A stretch of 64,000 bases of DNA from positions 62,001-126,000 of the forward strand of contig NZ_PXNQ02000004.1 in NCBI RefSeq assembly GCF_003007735.2, read 5' to 3'. The notes under the pieces were generated by a model. The model saw only the letters and a program-made list of their open reading frames with translations, was not told the origin of the DNA and did not search any database. How positions within the stretch are numbered: the stretch's first letter is position 1; each line of letters begins with the position of its first letter. A program made the position numbers and the translations under genes. Shown here one piece after another: positions 6,802 to 14,834 of this stretch. The stretch comes from Paracoccus methylarcula. Its GTDB lineage: Bacteria > Pseudomonadota > Alphaproteobacteria > Rhodobacterales > Rhodobacteraceae.

Positions 6802-7713
6802 TCAAGCGGGCATTTCATGTGCCCAGGGTGGATTCGCACCGGGACGCGACACGGTGATGGCGGCGGCTTGCGCGCCCAGGGTCAGGGCGGCATGGATCTG
6901 TTCGCCGGTGATCCCGGCGATTCCATTCTTGCTCAACACGCCCTGACGTCTCAGGCTGGCCAGCACGCCGGCGTTGAACGTGTCGCCCGCGCCGATCGTA
7001 TCGGCGACATCGGTGCGAATGGCCGGGGCGCTAACAGTTTCGCCCGACCACAAGGCGCGGGCACCAGAGGCGCCGCCGGTCAGCAGGACAATCCTCGGGC
7101 CCAGTTCCAGCACCTTGCGGGCCGCATCCTCGGGGGCGAGTCCGGGATGCAGCCATTCGAGGTCGTCGGTCGAGAGCTTGACGATATCGGCCTGTGGCAG
7201 GATGCGATGCAGGCGGGCGCGGAAAGCATCCGCGTCGGAGATGAAGAAGGGCCGGATATTCGGATCGATCATGACCGGCAGGCGGTCATGGTTGCGCTCG
7301 ATCAGGGTCTCGACGGCCGCGCCGCAGGGATCGGGCACAAGGCTGATGCCGCCTGCGAAGATCGCCTCGATCCGGTCTGGCAGGGTGGGGATGTCATCCG
7401 GCGACAGCATCCGGCCCGCCGAGCCCTCGTCATAGAAGGAATAGACCGCATCGCCATCGCTCAGCGTCACCAGTGCGAGGGTGGTCAGCCGGTCCGAGCG
7501 GGGACAAAGGCCGGTATCGACCCCGGCCTCGGTCAGCGGGGCCAACAGCAACTCGCCGAAAGGATCGCGGCTGATAGGCCAGAGATAGCCGGTCGGTGTC
7601 CCAAGGCGGCCCAGGGCGATTGCCGTGTTATACACGGCTCCGCCCGCGAGGGGCCGGAATGTGTCGCCCTCCGGCACCATGTCGATCAATGATTCACCCG
7701 AACACAGGATCAT
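6802..7713 (-). CDS. PfkB-family carbohydrate kinase (fructokinase-like)
   Basis: A 303-residue ribokinase/PfkB-fold sugar kinase that transfers phosphate from ATP to a sugar hydroxyl. The N-terminal CSGESLIDMVP and the substrate-side glycine pair LAGGAVYNTAIALGRLG (22-38) are present, as is the ATP/anion-hole signature TIGAGDTFNAG (239-249) with catalytic Asp244. Overall it most resembles fructokinases. It begins 15 bases after the zinc-ribbon gene ends and may be read through from that cluster, although no functional link is evident; no sugar transporter is adjacent. Confidence 0.88.
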   Translation of the reverse strand: MILCSGESLIDMVPEGDTFRPLAGGAVYNTAIALGRLGTPTGYLWPISRDPFGELLLAPLTEAGVDTGLCPRSDRLTTLALVTLSDGDAVYSFYDEGSAGRMLSPDDIPTLPDRIEAIFAGGISLVPDPCGAAVETLIERNHDRLPVMIDPNIRPFFISDADAFRARLHRILPQADIVKLSTDDLEWLHPGLAPEDAARKVLELGPRIVLLTGGASGARALWSGETVSAPAIRTDVADTIGAGDTFNAGVLASLRRQGVLSKNGIAGITGEQIHAALTLGAQAAAITVSRPGANPPWAHEMPA

Positions 7714-7728: not shown

Positions 7729-9000
7729 CTATGCGCCGCCAATGGCAAAATTCCCGCCCGGAGCCATCCCATCCGGCAATAGCCCTCCGCCAAGCTGGAT
7801 ATAACCTCCGGCATCGGCGAAATACAGGAAAACCGCTAGCGCCACCAGAGCGGCGATGATGGCGGCGGCGATTTTCCAGATCGACCAGGGGCGTTCACCC
7901 TGCACCCGGCCCGACTGCCCGTTGACAAGGAACCGATAGCTTTTGCCGTTATACTTGTAGGCTGCGGCCCAGATCGGCAAAAGAACATGCTTGAAACTTT
8001 CGCCGCTGTAGTCGGTCTGGATCTGCGTCACCCGCTGCTCGTCCCCGCCGATGTCGTGGCGGGCGTCGTTCAGGATCACCCCGGCCATTTCCTGCCGCGC
8101 GATCCGGTGACCGTCGGCAAGCGGGACGGTGTATCCCTGGGCTCCGAATCCGGCGAGATAGTCGGGGCGATACGGCACCAGATGCGACAGGTCCCAAGGT
8201 GCCAGCCCATCCGAGAACTGCCGCGGCAGAGAGGCAGAGGCCAGCACCAGCACATCGTTGAAATCGCGGGAGACCCGGCCCGACACGTGACGCCAGCGGA
8301 TACGCCTGACCTGCCTGGCAACGCGCTGACGGCGGCCATTCACCTCTTGCGTGACATATACGGTCTCGTAATAGGCATCGCCTCGCTGCCCGGAATAGGC
8401 CGAGCGGGTGCGGGCGTCAAAGGTCCAGAAGGGCGAATAGACGCCGCTCATCCGCCGCCCCCGCCGCGCATAGGACAGCAGACCGGAGGGCGCGAACCAA
8501 AGGCGCCCCAGCCAGTCCTCCATCGCCTTGCGGGCCTGTTCCTCGGTCAGCTTGAATGGCAGCACGCCCTGTGGCTTGATATGGCGGGTGGTGCCGGTAT
8601 CGATGACGACAGGGGTGGCGCAGAATGGGCAGGCGCCGGCATGGCTGCCGCCGTCGAACTGCATCTGCGCGCCGCAATTGGGGCAGGAGGTGGTGCCAAT
8701 CTCTTCGGCGACATCCGAAGCTGCATCGAGCCGGAACCCCTTCTCCAACGGGATTTCGGTTAATTGCGGCGCCTTGTGCCCCGCATCCCATTGCAGGGCC
8801 TGCCTCGTCGGAGCAATTATCGGGATCGCGCTTCCGGTCCCGCCCTGATGCTGGTGGGCGGATGCGGGCGCCGGATTGTCAAGAATGTCCTGCCGATGGC
8901 CGCAATAGTCGCAGACCAGTTGCTGCTGGCCCGGCTGGAAGCGCAGGCTGGCACCGCATTGCTCGCAGGGATAGCGATGCTCGGTCGAGGATGTCGGCAT
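7729..9000 (-). CDS. zinc-ribbon membrane-anchored protein (YdjG-like)
   Basis: A 423-residue protein with two N-terminal zinc ribbons: CEQC...CDYC (Cys12, 15, 30, 33) and CPNC...CPFC (around residues 105-130). A long middle domain of beta-rich, tyrosine-rich sequence follows, and a single membrane segment lies near the C-terminus (IWKIAAAIIAALVALAVFLY, about 373-392). Proteins of this kind are often mislabelled as replication factor Y or helicase; no helicase motif is present. The start is 6 bases from the end of the SPFH gene, so the two are co-translated. The pair recalls Bacillus YdjG-YdjI, which hold PspA at the membrane; a similar role here is inferred. Confidence 0.75.
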   Translation of the reverse strand: MPTSSTEHRYPCEQCGASLRFQPGQQQLVCDYCGHRQDILDNPAPASAHQHQGGTGSAIPIIAPTRQALQWDAGHKAPQLTEIPLEKGFRLDAASDVAEEIGTTSCPNCGAQMQFDGGSHAGACPFCATPVVIDTGTTRHIKPQGVLPFKLTEEQARKAMEDWLGRLWFAPSGLLSYARRGRRMSGVYSPFWTFDARTRSAYSGQRGDAYYETVYVTQEVNGRRQRVARQVRRIRWRHVSGRVSRDFNDVLVLASASLPRQFSDGLAPWDLSHLVPYRPDYLAGFGAQGYTVPLADGHRIARQEMAGVILNDARHDIGGDEQRVTQIQTDYSGESFKHVLLPIWAAAYKYNGKSYRFLVNGQSGRVQGERPWSIWKIAAAIIAALVALAVFLYFADAGGYIQLGGGLLPDGMAPGGNFAIGGA

Positions 9001-9006
9001 GGGCGG

Positions 9007-10140
9007 TCAGCGCGGCAGGGGTGGAGGCAGCGTGGTGAACAATTGCGCGAGTTCCGGGATGTCTTCGGCCTTCAGCCAGCCATCCTGTCCCTGTGTCCAG
9101 ACCAGCGTTTCGCGGGTAAAGCTGCCATCCGTGATCATGCGCCCCAGATGGCCGCGCCCGAACGGCCCCTGCGCCTCGCCATCGATCGCTACATGCCAGA
9201 CGGTTTCGGCCTGGCGGCCGGGCAGCGGGGGCGGAGTGGCCGCGGCGGAAGAAGGCGCGGGATGGGGCACCTGCCCGGCATGCGGCGCTTGCCCCCAGGG
9301 GCCTGCCATGCCCATCCCCATGGCGGCGCCCATCGCCGCCCCCATGCCCGCCCCGGCGCCTCCCGGATTGGTGCTGGCATTCATCATCGCCTCGCTGGCG
9401 GCATATTGGCCAAAGCGGTCCAGATCGCCGATGATTCCCATCGAGGTCCGCTTGTCCAGCATCTTCTCGACCTCTTGGGGCAAGCTGATATTCTCGATGT
9501 AGAATTCCGGGATGCTCAGCCCATAGGCCGCGATCACCGGCCCGATCGCCTTGGCCACCATCTTGCCCAGATCGCCGGTATTCGCGGCCATATCAAGCAC
9601 CGGGAGCCCCGACCCGGCGATCATGCGCGAGAATTCCTGCACGATCACGTTGCGGATCTGGAAGGTGATTTCATCACTGGTGAATTCGCCATCCGTGCCA
9701 ACGATTTCCGACATGAAAAGCGCCGGATCCGAGACGCGCATCGAATAGGTGCCGAAGGCGCGCAGGCGGATCGGGCCGAATTCAGGGTCGCGGGCGATGA
9801 TCGGGTTCTTGGTGCCCCATTTGAGATTGTTGAAGCGGGTGGTGTTGACGAAGTAGATTTCCGATTTGAACGGGCTGCGGAAGCCGTGATCCCAATGCTG
9901 CAGCCGGGTCATGATCGGCAGGTTGTTGGTCTCCAGCATGTAGAGACCGGGCTTGAACACATCGGCCAATTGCCCTTCATGGATGAAGACGGCCGCCTGT
10001 CCTTCGCGCACGGTCAGCTTGGCGCCGTATTTGATCGCACGCCCGACCGTGTCGAAGCGCCAGACCATGGTGTCATGCGTGTCGTCGGTCCATTCGATGA
10101 TCTCGATGAACTCGCCGCCGAGAATGTCGAAGATGCTCAT
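9007..10140 (-). CDS. SPFH-domain protein with C-terminal GYF_2 domain (YdjI-like)
   Basis: A 377-residue protein. The chosen start (MSIFDILGGEFIEIIEW) follows a GGAGG site; a longer frame begins at 10185. Residues 1 to about 245 form an SPFH/band-7 domain of the type labelled virion core protein. A glycine/alanine/methionine-rich linker (about 250-315) leads to a GYF_2 domain (VWHVAIDGEAQGPFGRGHLG to the end), a peptide-binding or membrane-targeting module. SPFH proteins form large membrane-associated rings or scaffolds. It sits between the DUF2927 lipoprotein and the zinc-ribbon protein. Confidence 0.85.
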   Translation of the reverse strand: MSIFDILGGEFIEIIEWTDDTHDTMVWRFDTVGRAIKYGAKLTVREGQAAVFIHEGQLADVFKPGLYMLETNNLPIMTRLQHWDHGFRSPFKSEIYFVNTTRFNNLKWGTKNPIIARDPEFGPIRLRAFGTYSMRVSDPALFMSEIVGTDGEFTSDEITFQIRNVIVQEFSRMIAGSGLPVLDMAANTGDLGKMVAKAIGPVIAAYGLSIPEFYIENISLPQEVEKMLDKRTSMGIIGDLDRFGQYAASEAMMNASTNPGGAGAGMGAAMGAAMGMGMAGPWGQAPHAGQVPHPAPSSAAATPPPLPGRQAETVWHVAIDGEAQGPFGRGHLGRMITDGSFTRETLVWTQGQDGWLKAEDIPELAQLFTTLPPPLPR

Positions 10141-10257
10141 GCCGTCCTCCGTCAGAGACCGATAGCCCGGATCGTCCATGGCCATCCTTGCCCGACTTTT
10201 CGCACAGGATGGTAACGGGATCCATTCATTGCTGGCCGATCCGCCCGGCAGCCCGAC

Positions 10258-11298
10258 TCAGGGCAGCAATTCCCCGGCGATTTGCCGGACGATCGGCTCG
10301 GCCTCGGCCTCTGACATGCCGGGACGAAGGCGTGGGTCGTAAAGGATTTTCAACAGCAATTCGTCGTGCCGCGTCAGCAGGGCGAATTCCTCGTCGTCGT
10401 TGAAGATCGAGGGGCGCGCCTCGGGGCTGTCATTGGCAAGGCCCATGCCCTGCGCCATTTCTTCATGGATGCAGGACAGGCGCAGGAGCGGGGGCAGTTC
10501 GGCGCGGATCACCGCGACGGCATGGGCATAGCTGGTCGAAGCGCCCTCGGAATAGGCGAAGACGGTGCAATAGATATCGGGCGACAGATCACGCAATGCC
10601 GCGACGTCCCGGACAGGGATACCCGGCGCAAGGCCGGGGAGCCGCGCACCGATCTCCCGACGCTCCTCGTCGCTCAGCACCAGGATGGTGAAATTGCCGG
10701 TACCGTCAGTCAGGGCGACGTCATGCCCGGTGATCTCTCTCAGCCGGTTGGCAAAGGCGGCGACCTCGCTCCGTATTTCTCGCTTCAAGGCGGTGTTGGA
10801 TGACGGGCCGAACTCCAGATCGACATGAACCGGCTGTTGCCAGCGCCGCAACGGGGCGCTGGCGCCATCGGTATGATGCGTGCCATCGCTGCTGTATTCG
10901 TCGCGCAAGGCGATCCGGATGAAATTCCGTGCCAGTGTCTCGGCATCGATGGGCGCATCCATGGGAACCCGGTCGAGGCGCAGCCGATTACCGTCAAGCA
11001 GCTTCCGCTCGACTTCCGCGTAATAGTTCTGCTGCGTTTGGCTGATCGCGCTAACCTTGGTTGCTGCAACCCGATTAGCGGCTCGATTCCGCTCTGCCCG
11101 GGCCTCGCGAAGCTCCGCCTGGCTGGGGCCTTCGGATTCCGGAAGCTCAGGCTCGGTGACAGGGGGCGGGGCGATCCCGACCTCTTTTCCACCCTTGTCC
11201 GTGCAGCCGGCCAGTGCGAATGCAAGCATCAATGCCGGCATTGCCAGCGGATGGCACCGGGCATTGCGCAAAACCGAAGGGGACATCGTCAGCATCAC
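10258..11298 (-). CDS. DUF2927 lipoprotein
   Basis: A 346-residue protein with a lipoprotein-type signal: hydrophobic stretch ending in LAGC near residue 32. A charged, helical segment (about 50-90) precedes the DUF2927 domain, seen as ARNFIRIALRDEYS, LRRWQQPVHVDLEFG and a C-terminal SCIHEEMAQGMGLAND, whose HEE pair looks like a zinc-peptidase fragment, though activity is not established for the family. It overlaps the TelA gene by four bases (ATGA), so the two are translationally coupled and probably act together at the cell envelope. Confidence 0.82.
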   Translation of the reverse strand: MMLTMSPSVLRNARCHPLAMPALMLAFALAGCTDKGGKEVGIAPPPVTEPELPESEGPSQAELREARAERNRAANRVAATKVSAISQTQQNYYAEVERKLLDGNRLRLDRVPMDAPIDAETLARNFIRIALRDEYSSDGTHHTDGASAPLRRWQQPVHVDLEFGPSSNTALKREIRSEVAAFANRLREITGHDVALTDGTGNFTILVLSDEERREIGARLPGLAPGIPVRDVAALRDLSPDIYCTVFAYSEGASTSYAHAVAVIRAELPPLLRLSCIHEEMAQGMGLANDSPEARPSIFNDDEEFALLTRHDELLLKILYDPRLRPGMSEAEAEPIVRQIAGELLP

Positions 11299-12488
11299 GG
11301 TTCGACAGGCCGTCCGGCCGCTCCCTCCGGTTCGCCCGGGCGCTGTGCGCGGGCGGATGACAGCGCGTCGCGCAGCTCTGCCTCCATCTGGGTCAGTTCC
11401 TCTTCGGCGGCGGCCCGGCGGGCCCGGCCCTCGTCGGCGATCCGCAAGCTGTCCTCGATGGTCGAGATCAGTTCGGCATTTGCGGTGCGGACAGCCTCGA
11501 TATCGAACACGCCCCGCTCGGTCTGCGTGCGGATCTGGGCATTGGCCTGGCGAAGGTTTTCCGCATTGCCGGTCAGCAGGTCATTGGTCAGGTCGCTGGC
11601 CTCCCTGACCGCATTCGCGGCCTCGGCGCTACGCTGGATGGTGACGGCCTGCGCAAGCTGCGTCTCCCATAGCGGGACCGTGTTCACCAGGGTCGAGTTG
11701 ATCTTCGTCACCAGCGACTTGTCGTTCTCCTGCACCAGCCGGATCGAGGGCAGCGATTGCATCGTCACCTGCCGAGTCAGCTTGAGATCATGCACCCGGC
11801 GCTCCAGGTCGTCGCGCATGGTTTGCAGATCGCGCAGCTCCTGCGCCTCCATCACCTGATCGGATTCGGCGGTCTTGTCCAATGCGGCCCGCTTGGCGGG
11901 AATCACATCGTTATCGAGTTCGCGCAGCTTTTCCTCGCCCGCCGCGATATAAAGCGCCAATTCGTCATAGAAATTCAACGTGCGGTCATAGAGCAGATCC
12001 AGCGATTTGATATCCTTCAAAAGCTGCTGCTCGTGCCCTTCCAGATCCGTTGTCACGCGGTCGATCTGGGTCTGCACTTCTTCGTATCTGGCGGTGAATT
12101 TCGCGAAAGGTGCTGCGCGGCCCAGAAAACGCTCCCACCAACTGCGTTCGCGGCGCAGATCCAGCTCCGATGTCGAAAAGCCCCTGATCGAGGTGACGAT
12201 TTCGCGCAGGCTCTCGCCCGCGGGTCCGACATCCTTGTTCTTGACATCGGCCAGCATCTTCTGGCTGATTTCCTGTAGCTGGGTCTGCGCGCCCGCGCCG
12301 AAATGGATGATCGAGCCGGAATCGTCGAGATCGATCTCGGCCATGCGCTTGCGGATTTCCCCGCTCGTGGCGGGGTCGGCACTGGTCATCTCGACCTGAT
12401 CGCTGCTGGGTTCGGGCAGCACCACCGAGGTCACGTCTTCGATGTCCTTGGCAACAGCCTCGGCGCGGCGTTTCGTGTCTTCGGTCAT
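11295..12488 (-). CDS. TelA-like toxic anion resistance family protein
   Basis: A 397-residue cytoplasmic protein rich in long helices and coiled coil (heptad patterns across roughly 120-390). The chosen ATG follows AAGGGA; the open frame extends 48 codons further upstream without support. It matches the TelA/KlaA family by its IHFGAGAQTQLQEIS motif, the SWWERFLGRAAPFAKF motif and the long KSLDLLYDRTLNFYDELALYI helix. TelA was named for tellurite resistance on IncP plasmids, but chromosomal members are usually tied to membrane or antibiotic stress. It is the first gene of the cluster with DUF2927, SPFH and zinc-ribbon proteins. Confidence 0.88.
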   Translation of the reverse strand: MTEDTKRRAEAVAKDIEDVTSVVLPEPSSDQVEMTSADPATSGEIRKRMAEIDLDDSGSIIHFGAGAQTQLQEISQKMLADVKNKDVGPAGESLREIVTSIRGFSTSELDLRRERSWWERFLGRAAPFAKFTARYEEVQTQIDRVTTDLEGHEQQLLKDIKSLDLLYDRTLNFYDELALYIAAGEEKLRELDNDVIPAKRAALDKTAESDQVMEAQELRDLQTMRDDLERRVHDLKLTRQVTMQSLPSIRLVQENDKSLVTKINSTLVNTVPLWETQLAQAVTIQRSAEAANAVREASDLTNDLLTGNAENLRQANAQIRTQTERGVFDIEAVRTANAELISTIEDSLRIADEGRARRAAAEEELTQMEAELRDALSSARAQRPGEPEGAAGRPVEP

Positions 12489-12573
12489 GACAACTTCCCT
12501 TTTGACTTTGACGACCGCCCCGGCCGTTTTGCGCTGCAGCATAAGGTGATTCGGCAGGCTTTCAACAACTAGA

Positions 12574-12617
12574 GGGGGCGAAAATTTCGCCCCCCTTGCA
12601 GACGGGCAACGCCCGTC
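12574..12617 (-). terminator. two hairpins downstream of the FadB-like gene
   Basis: GGGGGCGAAA and TTTCGCCCCC (12574-12594) and GACGGGC-AAC-GCCCGTC (12601-12617) form two strong stems in the gap between the end of the FadB-like gene and the TelA start. No long T-run follows on the minus strand, so they may be a terminator of the beta-oxidation transcript or an mRNA 3' stabiliser. Confidence 0.5.
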
Positions 12618-12647: not shown

Positions 12648-14834
12648 TTAGGCAGCCTTTGCCTGCGGTCCGAACCGGCCATAGAAGCTGTCGCCCTTGC
12701 CCGCCATGTCGCGTAGCAGATCCGGTGCCTCGAAACGGGCGCCGTGACGGTCGGTCAAGCCCTCGCAGATCTCGACTGCGCGCGCCGCGCCCAGCATGTC
12801 CAGCCAGCCGAATGGACCGCCCGACCAAGGCGCAAAGCCCCAGCCCAGGATGGCGCCGACATCGCCTTCGCGAATGTCTTCCAGCACGCCTTCCCCAAGC
12901 GCCCGAACGGCTTCGAGGGTCTGGGCGAACATCAGGCGGTGCTGAACCTCGGTCAGTTCCGGCTGCTCATCCGCCTGAGGATATTTCGCCTCCAGCCCGT
13001 CCCAAAGCTCCTGCCGCTTGCCCTTTTCGTCATAGGCATAGAAGCCGGCATTTGCCTTGCGCCCAAGGCGGCCCTCATCGGCCATCCAGAACAGCACCTC
13101 GTCAACCGTGCCATCGGGATAGGCATCGCCCATCGCGGCCTTGGTCGCCTTGGCGATCTTGACGCCCAGATCGATAGAGGTCTCATCGACCAGTTGCAGC
13201 GGACCCAGGGGCATTCCCATCATCTTGGCCGCATTCTCGACCAGCACCGGGTTGACGCCCTCGGCCACCATCCGCACGCCCTCGTTGATATAGGGAATGA
13301 TGCAGCGATTGGCATAGAAGAAGCGGGCATCGTTCACCACGATCGGCGTCTTGCGGATCTGGCGCACGAAATCGAGCGCCTTGGCCACGGCACGGTCTCC
13401 GGTCTCGCGGCCCTTGATGATCTCGACCAGCAGCATCTTGTCCACGGGCGAGAAGAAATGGATGCCGATGAACTGATCGGGGCGGGCGCTTGCCTTTGCC
13501 AGATCGCTGATCGGCAGGGTCGAGGTGTTGGTGGCGAAGATCGCATCCTGCGGGATGACCGCCTCGGCTTTTTTCGTCACTTCGGCCTTGACGCCGGGAT
13601 CCTCGAACACCGCCTCGACCACCAGATCGCAGCCCTCAAGCGCGGCATAATCCGTGGTGGGCAGGATGCGGCCCAGAACCTCGGCCTTTTTCTCCTCGGT
13701 GGATTTCTTGCGGCTGATCGCCTTGTCCAGCAGACCCTCCGAATAGGATTTCCCCTTTTCGGCGGACTCTTGCTTGGCGTCGATCAGCACCACTTCGATT
13801 CCGGCCATGGCGCTGACATAGGCGATACCCGCACCCATCATTCCCGCACCGAGGATGCCGACCTTCCTGACCGTCTGGTCCGGGGCTTCGGGACGGTTTG
13901 CGCCCTTCTCCAATGCTTCCTTGTTGATGAACAGGCTGCGGATCATGGCGCTGGACGAAGGGTTCATCAGGACATGGGTGAACCAGCGGGCCTCGATCTT
14001 CAGGGCCTGGTCAAAGGGCACCAGCGCGCCTTCGTAAACCGCCGAGAGCAGGGCCTTGGCGGCAGGGTAAACCCCCATCGTCTTGCCATGCACCATCGCG
14101 CTTGCGCCGACAAAGGTCATGAAACCCGCCGGATGATAGGGCGCGCCGCCGGGCATCTTGTAGCCCTTCTGGTCCCAGGGCTTGACCAGATCGGCATCCT
14201 TGGCGTTCAGCACCCATTCACGCGCGGTGGCCAGAGGATCCTCGGCCACCTCGTCGATGATCCCGGCAGCCTTGGCCTTTTTCGGATCGTTAAGCTTGCC
14301 CTCGAGCAGGAAGGGCGCGGCCATCATCGCCCCAAGCTTGCGCGCCAGCCGCGTGGTGCCGCCCCCGCCGGGAAAGATACCGACCATGATCTCGGGCAGG
14401 CCGATCTTGGCCTTCGGGTTGTTGGCGGCAAAGATGCGATGCGTGGCCAGCGGCAATTCCAGCCCGATGCCAAGCGCCGTGCCGGGCAGGGCCGCCGCGA
14501 TGGGCTTGCCGCCTTTCAGCGTCTTGGGATCCATCCCGGCGCGCTCGATCTTGCGCAGCAGGTGATGCAGGGTCATGATCCCGTCGAACACGCCCTGCGC
14601 GCCGCCCTGGTCCTTCATTCCTGCAATGACATTCAGATCCATCCCGGCGGCGAAATCCTTCTTTCCGCTGGTGATGACGATGCCCTTCACCGCCTCGTCG
14701 GCAAGCGCCTCGTCGATCAGCTTGTCAAGCTCGGCCGCGCCCTCCAGCGACAGCACGTTCATGGACTTCTTCGGGACATCCCAGGTAATGACGGCAACGC
14801 CGTCCGAGTCTTTCTTGATCGTGAAATCGGTCAT
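12648..14834 (-). CDS. bifunctional enoyl-CoA hydratase / 3-hydroxyacyl-CoA dehydrogenase (FadB-like)
   Basis: A 728-residue fusion enzyme of fatty-acid beta-oxidation. Residues 1 to about 300 are an enoyl-CoA hydratase/isomerase (PGTALGIGLELPLATHR; LPEIMVGIFPGGGGTTRLAR, which carries the catalytic acidic residue). Residues about 325-500 are the NAD-binding 3-hydroxyacyl-CoA dehydrogenase (VGILGAGMMGAGIAYVSAMAG; the IGIHFFSPV motif with catalytic His), followed by the C-terminal dehydrogenase domains. It lies 14 bases downstream of the thiolase, the usual partner in a FadBA-type complex. The last gene of the block. Confidence 0.92.
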   Translation of the reverse strand: MTDFTIKKDSDGVAVITWDVPKKSMNVLSLEGAAELDKLIDEALADEAVKGIVITSGKKDFAAGMDLNVIAGMKDQGGAQGVFDGIMTLHHLLRKIERAGMDPKTLKGGKPIAAALPGTALGIGLELPLATHRIFAANNPKAKIGLPEIMVGIFPGGGGTTRLARKLGAMMAAPFLLEGKLNDPKKAKAAGIIDEVAEDPLATAREWVLNAKDADLVKPWDQKGYKMPGGAPYHPAGFMTFVGASAMVHGKTMGVYPAAKALLSAVYEGALVPFDQALKIEARWFTHVLMNPSSSAMIRSLFINKEALEKGANRPEAPDQTVRKVGILGAGMMGAGIAYVSAMAGIEVVLIDAKQESAEKGKSYSEGLLDKAISRKKSTEEKKAEVLGRILPTTDYAALEGCDLVVEAVFEDPGVKAEVTKKAEAVIPQDAIFATNTSTLPISDLAKASARPDQFIGIHFFSPVDKMLLVEIIKGRETGDRAVAKALDFVRQIRKTPIVVNDARFFYANRCIIPYINEGVRMVAEGVNPVLVENAAKMMGMPLGPLQLVDETSIDLGVKIAKATKAAMGDAYPDGTVDEVLFWMADEGRLGRKANAGFYAYDEKGKRQELWDGLEAKYPQADEQPELTEVQHRLMFAQTLEAVRALGEGVLEDIREGDVGAILGWGFAPWSGGPFGWLDMLGAARAVEICEGLTDRHGARFEAPDLLRDMAGKGDSFYGRFGPQAKAA

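What the first reader, a model, noticed from the sequence alone, without database searches (positions are those of the whole stretch)
7729..12488. TelA, DUF2927 lipoprotein, SPFH/GYF and zinc-ribbon membrane protein as one module
Seen: four genes in one orientation with overlaps or gaps of 4 and 6 bases for two pairs. Known: in Bacillus an SPFH protein and a zinc-ribbon membrane protein (YdjI, YdjG) work with a PspA protein, and TelA proteins are tied to envelope stress in other bacteria. Inferred: a cell-envelope stress complex with a cytoplasmic coiled-coil protein (TelA), an SPFH scaffold, a membrane anchor and a lipoprotein on the other side. No PspA gene is present, so the lipoprotein and TelA may take its place, which would be new.
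Basis: partly seen in the sequence, partly recalled or inferred. Interest (0 to 1): 0.5.

Follow-up and report, generated by a model that had tools for sequence, protein, structure and literature searches.

The report
TelA–SPFH module with protease-like lipoprotein
Four neighbouring genes that stay together in most relatives examined look like a membrane-maintenance module, and one of them, a lipoprotein of unknown function, is predicted to have the fold of a zinc protease whose zinc-holding residues have been replaced.

Summary
Four minus-strand genes (telA, DUF2927 lipoprotein, SPFH+GYF protein, double-zinc-ribbon membrane protein) lie together, and 101 of 120 loci from one-per-genus relatives keep exactly this order. 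TelA and this SPFH type are kept or lost together: SPFH is in 118 of 119 TelA genomes and in 0 of 11 TelA-less ones.

The set resembles Bacillus YdjG/YdjI without PspA, and the own genome has no PspA match. But PspA presence does not depend on TelA (23 of 119 against 1 of 11), TelA shows no detectable PspA homology, and the zinc-ribbon protein is tail-anchored, so nothing encoded here reaches far into the periplasm. Outside the family the TelA–SPFH–zinc-ribbon core occurs without DUF2927 (3 genomes).

The new result is DUF2927. A confident model (pLDDT 93.9) matches matrix metalloproteinases (Z up to 12.1; all 50 listed rows), yet 0 of 207 sequences have HExxHxxGxx[HD] and 198 have EExxQxxGxx[ND]. 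I read it as a pseudo-metzincin, or less likely a site for another metal. No held paper names DUF2927 or PF11150.

The parts
11295..12488 (-). telA, 397 aa, TelA family (PF05816), soluble, predicted long helical hairpin
10258..11298 (-). DUF2927 lipoprotein (PF11150), 346 aa, predicted metzincin fold
11203..11214 (-). lipobox LAGC of the DUF2927 protein (Cys32)
   Evidence: sequence; a lipobox-like pattern is in 185 of 191 homologous rows
10429..10464 (-). EEMAQGMGLAND stretch, at the place of the metzincin zinc-binding motif
9007..10185 (-). SPFH protein, 392 aa, no TM helix
9433..10065 (-). Band_7_1 (SPFH) domain
9049..9198 (-). GYF_2 domain
7729..9000 (-). zinc-ribbon protein, 423 aa, CxxC pairs at residues 12/30 and 106/124
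7816..7872 (-). C-terminal TM helix (residues 377-395) of the zinc-ribbon protein: tail anchor

Best explanation
A membrane-maintenance module of the SPFH type. Shown: TelA and SPFH are inherited together, SPFH and the zinc-ribbon protein travel as a pair, and the zinc-ribbon protein is a tail-anchored protein with its bulk on one side. Inferred: the zinc-ribbon protein sits in the inner membrane with its ribbons in the cytoplasm and recruits SPFH oligomers; the GYF domain of SPFH binds proline-rich tails, probably those of its own neighbours, and holds the scaffold together; TelA is a soluble coiled-coil partner that acts on this platform when the membrane is disturbed. DUF2927 is a lipoprotein outside the cytoplasm with a metzincin fold but without the zinc-binding histidines. 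It most likely binds an envelope ligand (a peptide, a cell-wall fragment or a partner protein) rather than cutting it, and works in parallel with the core, not as a physical part of it.
For: Order and strand kept in 101 of 120 family loci and all four genes present in 68 of 80 named loci. SPFH in 118 of 119 TelA genomes and 0 of 11 TelA-less ones (Fisher p 4e-15, relatedness not corrected). Where SPFH is not beside TelA it lies elsewhere in 10 of 12 genomes tested, and with the zinc-ribbon gene in all 10. TelA-SPFH-zinc-ribbon without DUF2927 in three other families (L205-L207). An SPFH-zinc-ribbon pair alone on a Vibrio plasmid. XpaC-like, TelA and a short SPFH+GYF gene side by side in another genome of the phylum (L311). 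In B. subtilis YdjG and YdjH are needed to bring YdjI and PspA to the membrane (passages of PMC8581546), and xpaC-yaaN, yceC-H and pspA-ydjGHI are all in the sigma-W regulon (passages of PMC3498285). DUF2927 fold; motif. 23 of 36 conserved columns fall in 52 of 313 residues around the would-be active site (6 expected).
Against: No expression, interaction or phenotype data for this organism. Genomes of one family are not independent. DUF2927 has other copies elsewhere in several genomes and remains in 6 of 11 TelA-less genomes. Two genomes keep telA (and DUF2927) without SPFH (G264, G272). Most TelA genes outside the family have other neighbours: none of 20 further loci of the phylum has a strong SPFH match. 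Foldseek's best E for DUF2927 is 4.3e-3, none at or below 0.001; the sequence profile does not match peptidase M10 significantly (probability 0.3).
Confidence: 0.5

Rival explanations
1. TelA (with the lipoprotein) replaces PspA as the membrane-repair polymer in a PspA-less version of the Bacillus ydj system.
For: No PspA in the own genome and PspA over cut-off in only 24 of 130 family genomes against TelA in 119. Predicted TelA is almost wholly helical with helices of 80 and 116 residues.
Against: PspA and TelA do not exclude each other (23 of 119 against 1 of 11). Profiles do not match (probability 3.3). PspA is not among the 50 rows listed for the TelA model; the listed rows are mixed helical bundles in a Z range that means little. 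The TelA model is only moderately confident (pLDDT 79).
Confidence: 0.15
2. DUF2927 is an active enzyme: a metzincin-fold hydrolase that uses Glu, Gln and Asn to hold a metal other than zinc, and trims envelope proteins or peptidoglycan.
For: The Glu in the place of the catalytic base (E247) is invariant in 66 of 66 rows and Q250, N256 and D257 in 65 of 66; such conservation suggests a working site. A His (H245) precedes it in 58 of 66 rows.
Against: No sequence has the canonical motif (0 of 207); four Paracoccus copies have Ala in place of N256 and one copy has His in place of Q250; no Met of a Met-turn in the consensus.
Confidence: 0.2
3. Plain gene-order conservation without shared function: four housekeeping genes that happen to be in one conserved chromosomal stretch.
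For: A carbohydrate kinase gene (pfkB type) follows in 58 of 120 loci, which shows that unrelated neighbours can also persist.
Against: Joint absence of TelA and SPFH in 11 of 11 genomes and survival of the link after relocation are not explained by gene order.
Confidence: 0.1

Closest known systems
Bacillus subtilis pspA-ydjGHI operon
   Same: SPFH (Band 7) protein without TM helix encoded with a membrane protein that has two zinc ribbons and a TM segment (passages of PMC8581546 and PMC11237479).
   Different: No pspA in the genome; TelA and DUF2927 are added; SPFH ends in a GYF domain instead of a zinc finger (no CxxC after residue 250 in 188 rows); no gene named TPM/YdjH was looked for beyond the immediate neighbours.
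xpaC-yaaN (TelA) pair of Firmicutes; Listeria lmo1966-lmo1967
   Same: TelA family; in Listeria a telA mutant is more sensitive to nisin and tellurite (passages of PMC12791056).
   Different: Partner there is XpaC; here SPFH and zinc ribbon. L311 joins XpaC-like, TelA and a short SPFH+GYF gene.
Matrix metalloproteinases and snapalysin (metzincins)
   Same: Predicted fold of DUF2927 residues about 92-290 of the model: Z 12.1, rmsd 2.6, 147 residues aligned to MMP-7 (2y6d).
   Different: HExxHxxGxx[HD] replaced by EExxQxxGxx[ND]; sequence identity 10-15% in the listed rows.

Membership tests
TelA (PF05816) | whole-length profile match over the curated cut-off | tested here: met
   357 bits against a cut-off of 30
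DUF2927 (PF11150) | profile match over the curated cut-off | tested here: met
   209 bits against 26.2
Band_7_1 SPFH (PF13421) | profile match over the curated cut-off | tested here: met
   338 bits against 24
B. subtilis PspA-YdjGHI system | PspA encoded with the SPFH and zinc-ribbon genes | tested here: not met
   no PF04012 match in the whole assembly; control genomes ring in 9 of 14
B. subtilis PspA-YdjGHI system | zinc-ribbon membrane protein homologous to YdjG | tested here: inconclusive
   same architecture (four CxxC, TM) but YdjG's sequence was not at hand for comparison
B. subtilis PspA-YdjGHI system | membrane targeting of SPFH by the membrane partner | not testable with these tools
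   needs microscopy or fractionation
Metzincins | metzincin fold | tested here: met
   predicted model only: all 50 listed VIA-align rows are matrix metalloproteinase or karilysin entries, Z 11.0-12.1; 49 of the 50 Foldseek rows are metzincin entries, best E 4.3e-3
Metzincins | zinc motif HExxHxxGxx[HD] | tested here: not met
   0 of 207 distinct ORFs
Metzincins | methionine of the Met-turn | tested here: not met
   no conserved Met between the motif and the next helix in the consensus; place inferred from sequence, not from superposed coordinates
PspA/ESCRT-III (for TelA) | homology to PspA | tested here: inconclusive
   hhalign of 13 PspA sequences against TelA, probability 3.3; fold comparison lists only unspecific helical bundles

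The most novel reading that the evidence does not exclude
Rhodobacteraceae carry a PspA-independent membrane-protection system: a tail-anchored zinc-ribbon protein and an SPFH-GYF scaffold that deploy TelA in the cytoplasm, paired with a family of envelope lipoproteins that turned the metzincin protease fold into a sensor, or into a hydrolase with an all-oxygen metal site (Glu, Gln, Asn).
Probability: 0.3. Interest if true: 0.65.

Novelty: new variant of a known kind. Interest (0 to 1): 0.45.

Why it matters
TelA and DUF2927 are families without a known mechanism; I found no held paper that names DUF2927 or PF11150. A fixed partner set for TelA, present in 119 of 130 sampled genomes of the family of which few have PspA, makes the role of TelA testable in tractable hosts such as Paracoccus denitrificans. 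A metzincin fold with a conserved but non-canonical site would add a new branch to a much studied protease fold and give DUF2927 its first concrete hypothesis.

Tried and rejected
PspA replacement by mutual exclusion: tested and not seen. TelA-PspA homology: not detected; three of the 16 PspA reading frames first chosen were wrong (L248, L249, L254), and the test was repeated with 13. TelA fold search: only mixed helical bundles, no decision. Sequence-profile test of DUF2927 against peptidase M10: only 8 columns aligned, probability 0.3, not significant, though in the register E247 = catalytic Glu, Q250 = second His, G253 = Gly. DUF2927 profile against solved structures: nothing below E 0.1. 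Defence-system library: no match of note. Promoter and terminator scan: no more than in shuffles, 2 against 1.5 and 4 against 4.1; a 10-pair hairpin at 12573-12595 upstream of telA is the best single site. GYF regular expression: 172 of 188 SPFH rows; of the 16 misses listed, 10 show a GYF-like end by eye, 4 are cut short, 2 (L071, L211) lack it in the frame shown. Plasmid search with SPFH: 19 records, 3 opened. Phylum survey: 67 of 299 genomes with TelA, 20 of their loci fetched, of which L330 gave no match to my TelA model.
Full report
Observation. The telA/DUF2927 overlap is 4 bases and the SPFH/zinc-ribbon gap 6 bases; between DUF2927 and SPFH there are 72 bases. Upstream lies a FadJ-like gene (12648-14834), downstream a pfkB-type kinase (6802-7713).

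Conservation. A scan with the DUF2927 protein gave 80 named loci, mostly Paracoccus and relatives; 68 of 80 hold all four genes (several of the rest are short contigs). For an even sample I used 130 genomes of 129 genera of the same family. TelA is found in 119. I fetched 120 loci: 118 genomes other than the own, one of them (G250) in two pieces, and one further genome, G018, from the class sample. 101 of 120 have exactly telA, DUF2927, SPFH, zinc ribbon in one orientation; 1 has two DUF2927 copies, 1 a split zinc-ribbon match, 2 a displaced or inverted zinc-ribbon gene, 3 lack DUF2927, 3 lack the zinc-ribbon match, 5 have telA and DUF2927 only, 4 telA only; several of the incomplete ones end at a contig end.

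Joint presence. The 8 TelA genomes without SPFH next door are G235, G196, G214, G198, G264, G160, G147 and G213; SPFH is elsewhere in 7 of these. So 118 of 119 TelA genomes, the own one included, have SPFH. Of 11 TelA-less genomes none has a strong SPFH match; G194 has a generic match of 27.9 bits, slightly over the cut-off. Fisher p is 4e-15, without correction for relatedness. In named Paracoccus loci where SPFH and zinc ribbon are not beside telA (L008-L011, L016) the pair sits elsewhere in the genome, with pfkB. In P. alkanivorans (L002) the SPFH gene is gone, a 45-codon match to the zinc-ribbon gene remains beside pfkB, and the genome has no SPFH match. In G160 DUF2927 goes with SPFH and zinc ribbon, about 37 kb from telA. 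DUF2927 stands beside telA in 113 of 119 genomes, the own one included, but is also in 6 of 11 TelA-less genomes.

Wider view. In 144 genomes of the class, spread over families, TelA is over cut-off in 13 and DUF2927 in 18; Band_7_1 exceeds 200 bits in 8. Three other families have telA-SPFH-zinc ribbon without DUF2927 (L205-L207), and L213 has SPFH-zinc ribbon apart from telA. Of 20 TelA loci fetched beyond these, none has a strong SPFH or zinc-ribbon match; L311 has a short SPFH+GYF gene after telA and an XpaC-like gene before it. A Vibrio coralliilyticus plasmid has the SPFH-zinc-ribbon pair alone. Paracoccus ferrooxidans carries all four genes and the kinase in the same order, annotated as such.

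Protein anatomy. TelA and SPFH have no TM helix. The zinc-ribbon protein has one at residues 377-395 with 28 residues after it. In 111 homologues (L082-L221, at least 350 bits) all have four CxxC motifs and a TM helix near the C-terminus; the tail after it is 10 residues or fewer in 102 and 30 or fewer in 108. So it is a tail-anchored protein. Lipobox-like patterns are in 185 of 191 DUF2927 rows. The established preference of GYF domains for proline-rich peptides (recalled) and the proline runs beside the GYF domain in many copies suggest self-association; this is inference.

DUF2927. The model from 66 sequences has mean pLDDT 93.9 and pTM 0.86. Foldseek: best E 4.3e-3 (MMP-13), none at or below 0.001; 49 of the 50 listed rows are matrix metalloproteinase, karilysin or snapalysin entries. 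VIA-align 2: all 50 listed rows are matrix metalloproteinase or karilysin entries, Z 11.0-12.1, against 7 to 8 as a typical best Z for models without clear matches. The helix at model residues 237-252 carries E246, E247 and Q250 and ends at the invariant G253, as the zinc-binding helix of metzincins does (metzincin layout recalled). E246, E247 and G253 are invariant in 66 of 66, Q250, N256 and D257 in 65 of 66, H245 in 58. Among 207 distinct ORFs 198 have EExxQxxGxx[ND] and none HExxHxxGxx[HD]; the 9 misses are four Paracoccus copies with Ala for Asn, L087, L176 and three divergent members of the L216 cluster. 23 of 36 conserved columns lie in this region of 52 residues. I conclude: metzincin fold very likely (about 0.9), loss of classical zinc protease activity likely (about 0.8).

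Comparison with print. Passages of PMC8581546 report that YdjG and YdjH are needed for YdjI and PspA to reach the membrane. Passages of PMC11237479 describe band-7/zinc-ribbon genes with pspA and contain no mention of TelA. Passages of PMC3498285 place xpaC-yaaN, yceC-H and pspA-ydjGHI in the sigma-W regulon. Passages of PMC12791056 tell of nisin and tellurite sensitivity of a Listeria telA mutant. Searches for TelA with SPFH, zinc ribbon and PspA, toxic anion resistance with SPFH and operon, DUF2927 and PF11150 found no description of this module in the held library; subscription papers are not held, and the Ter/TelA survey of Anantharaman and colleagues (recalled) could not be read.

Verdict. 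A real, conserved module, a new variant of the SPFH-zinc-ribbon membrane systems. The most interesting part is the lipoprotein's predicted fold.

Noticed in passing
6802-7713: A pfkB-type carbohydrate kinase follows the zinc-ribbon gene by 15 bases here and in 58 of 120 family loci; its link to the module is unclear.
   Followed up: partly
L216:3982-18824: A cluster of DUF2927 genes: 7 matches in about 20 kb of one contig of genome G134, with diverged motifs in three.
   Followed up: no
L002:11220-11354: Paracoccus alkanivorans: SPFH gene missing and only a 45-codon match to the zinc-ribbon gene left next to pfkB, telA and DUF2927 kept.
   Followed up: partly
L311:4439-8945: XpaC-like gene, telA, short SPFH+GYF gene and a lytic transglycosylase gene in a row in a more distant genome of the phylum.
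   Followed up: partly
L331:718-8154: Vibrio coralliilyticus plasmid: SPFH-zinc-ribbon pair next to TIR-domain and TRAFs-binding-domain genes, without TelA or DUF2927.
   Followed up: no
L087:8095-9033: A DUF2927 copy beside telA with His in place of the conserved Gln of the motif.
   Followed up: no
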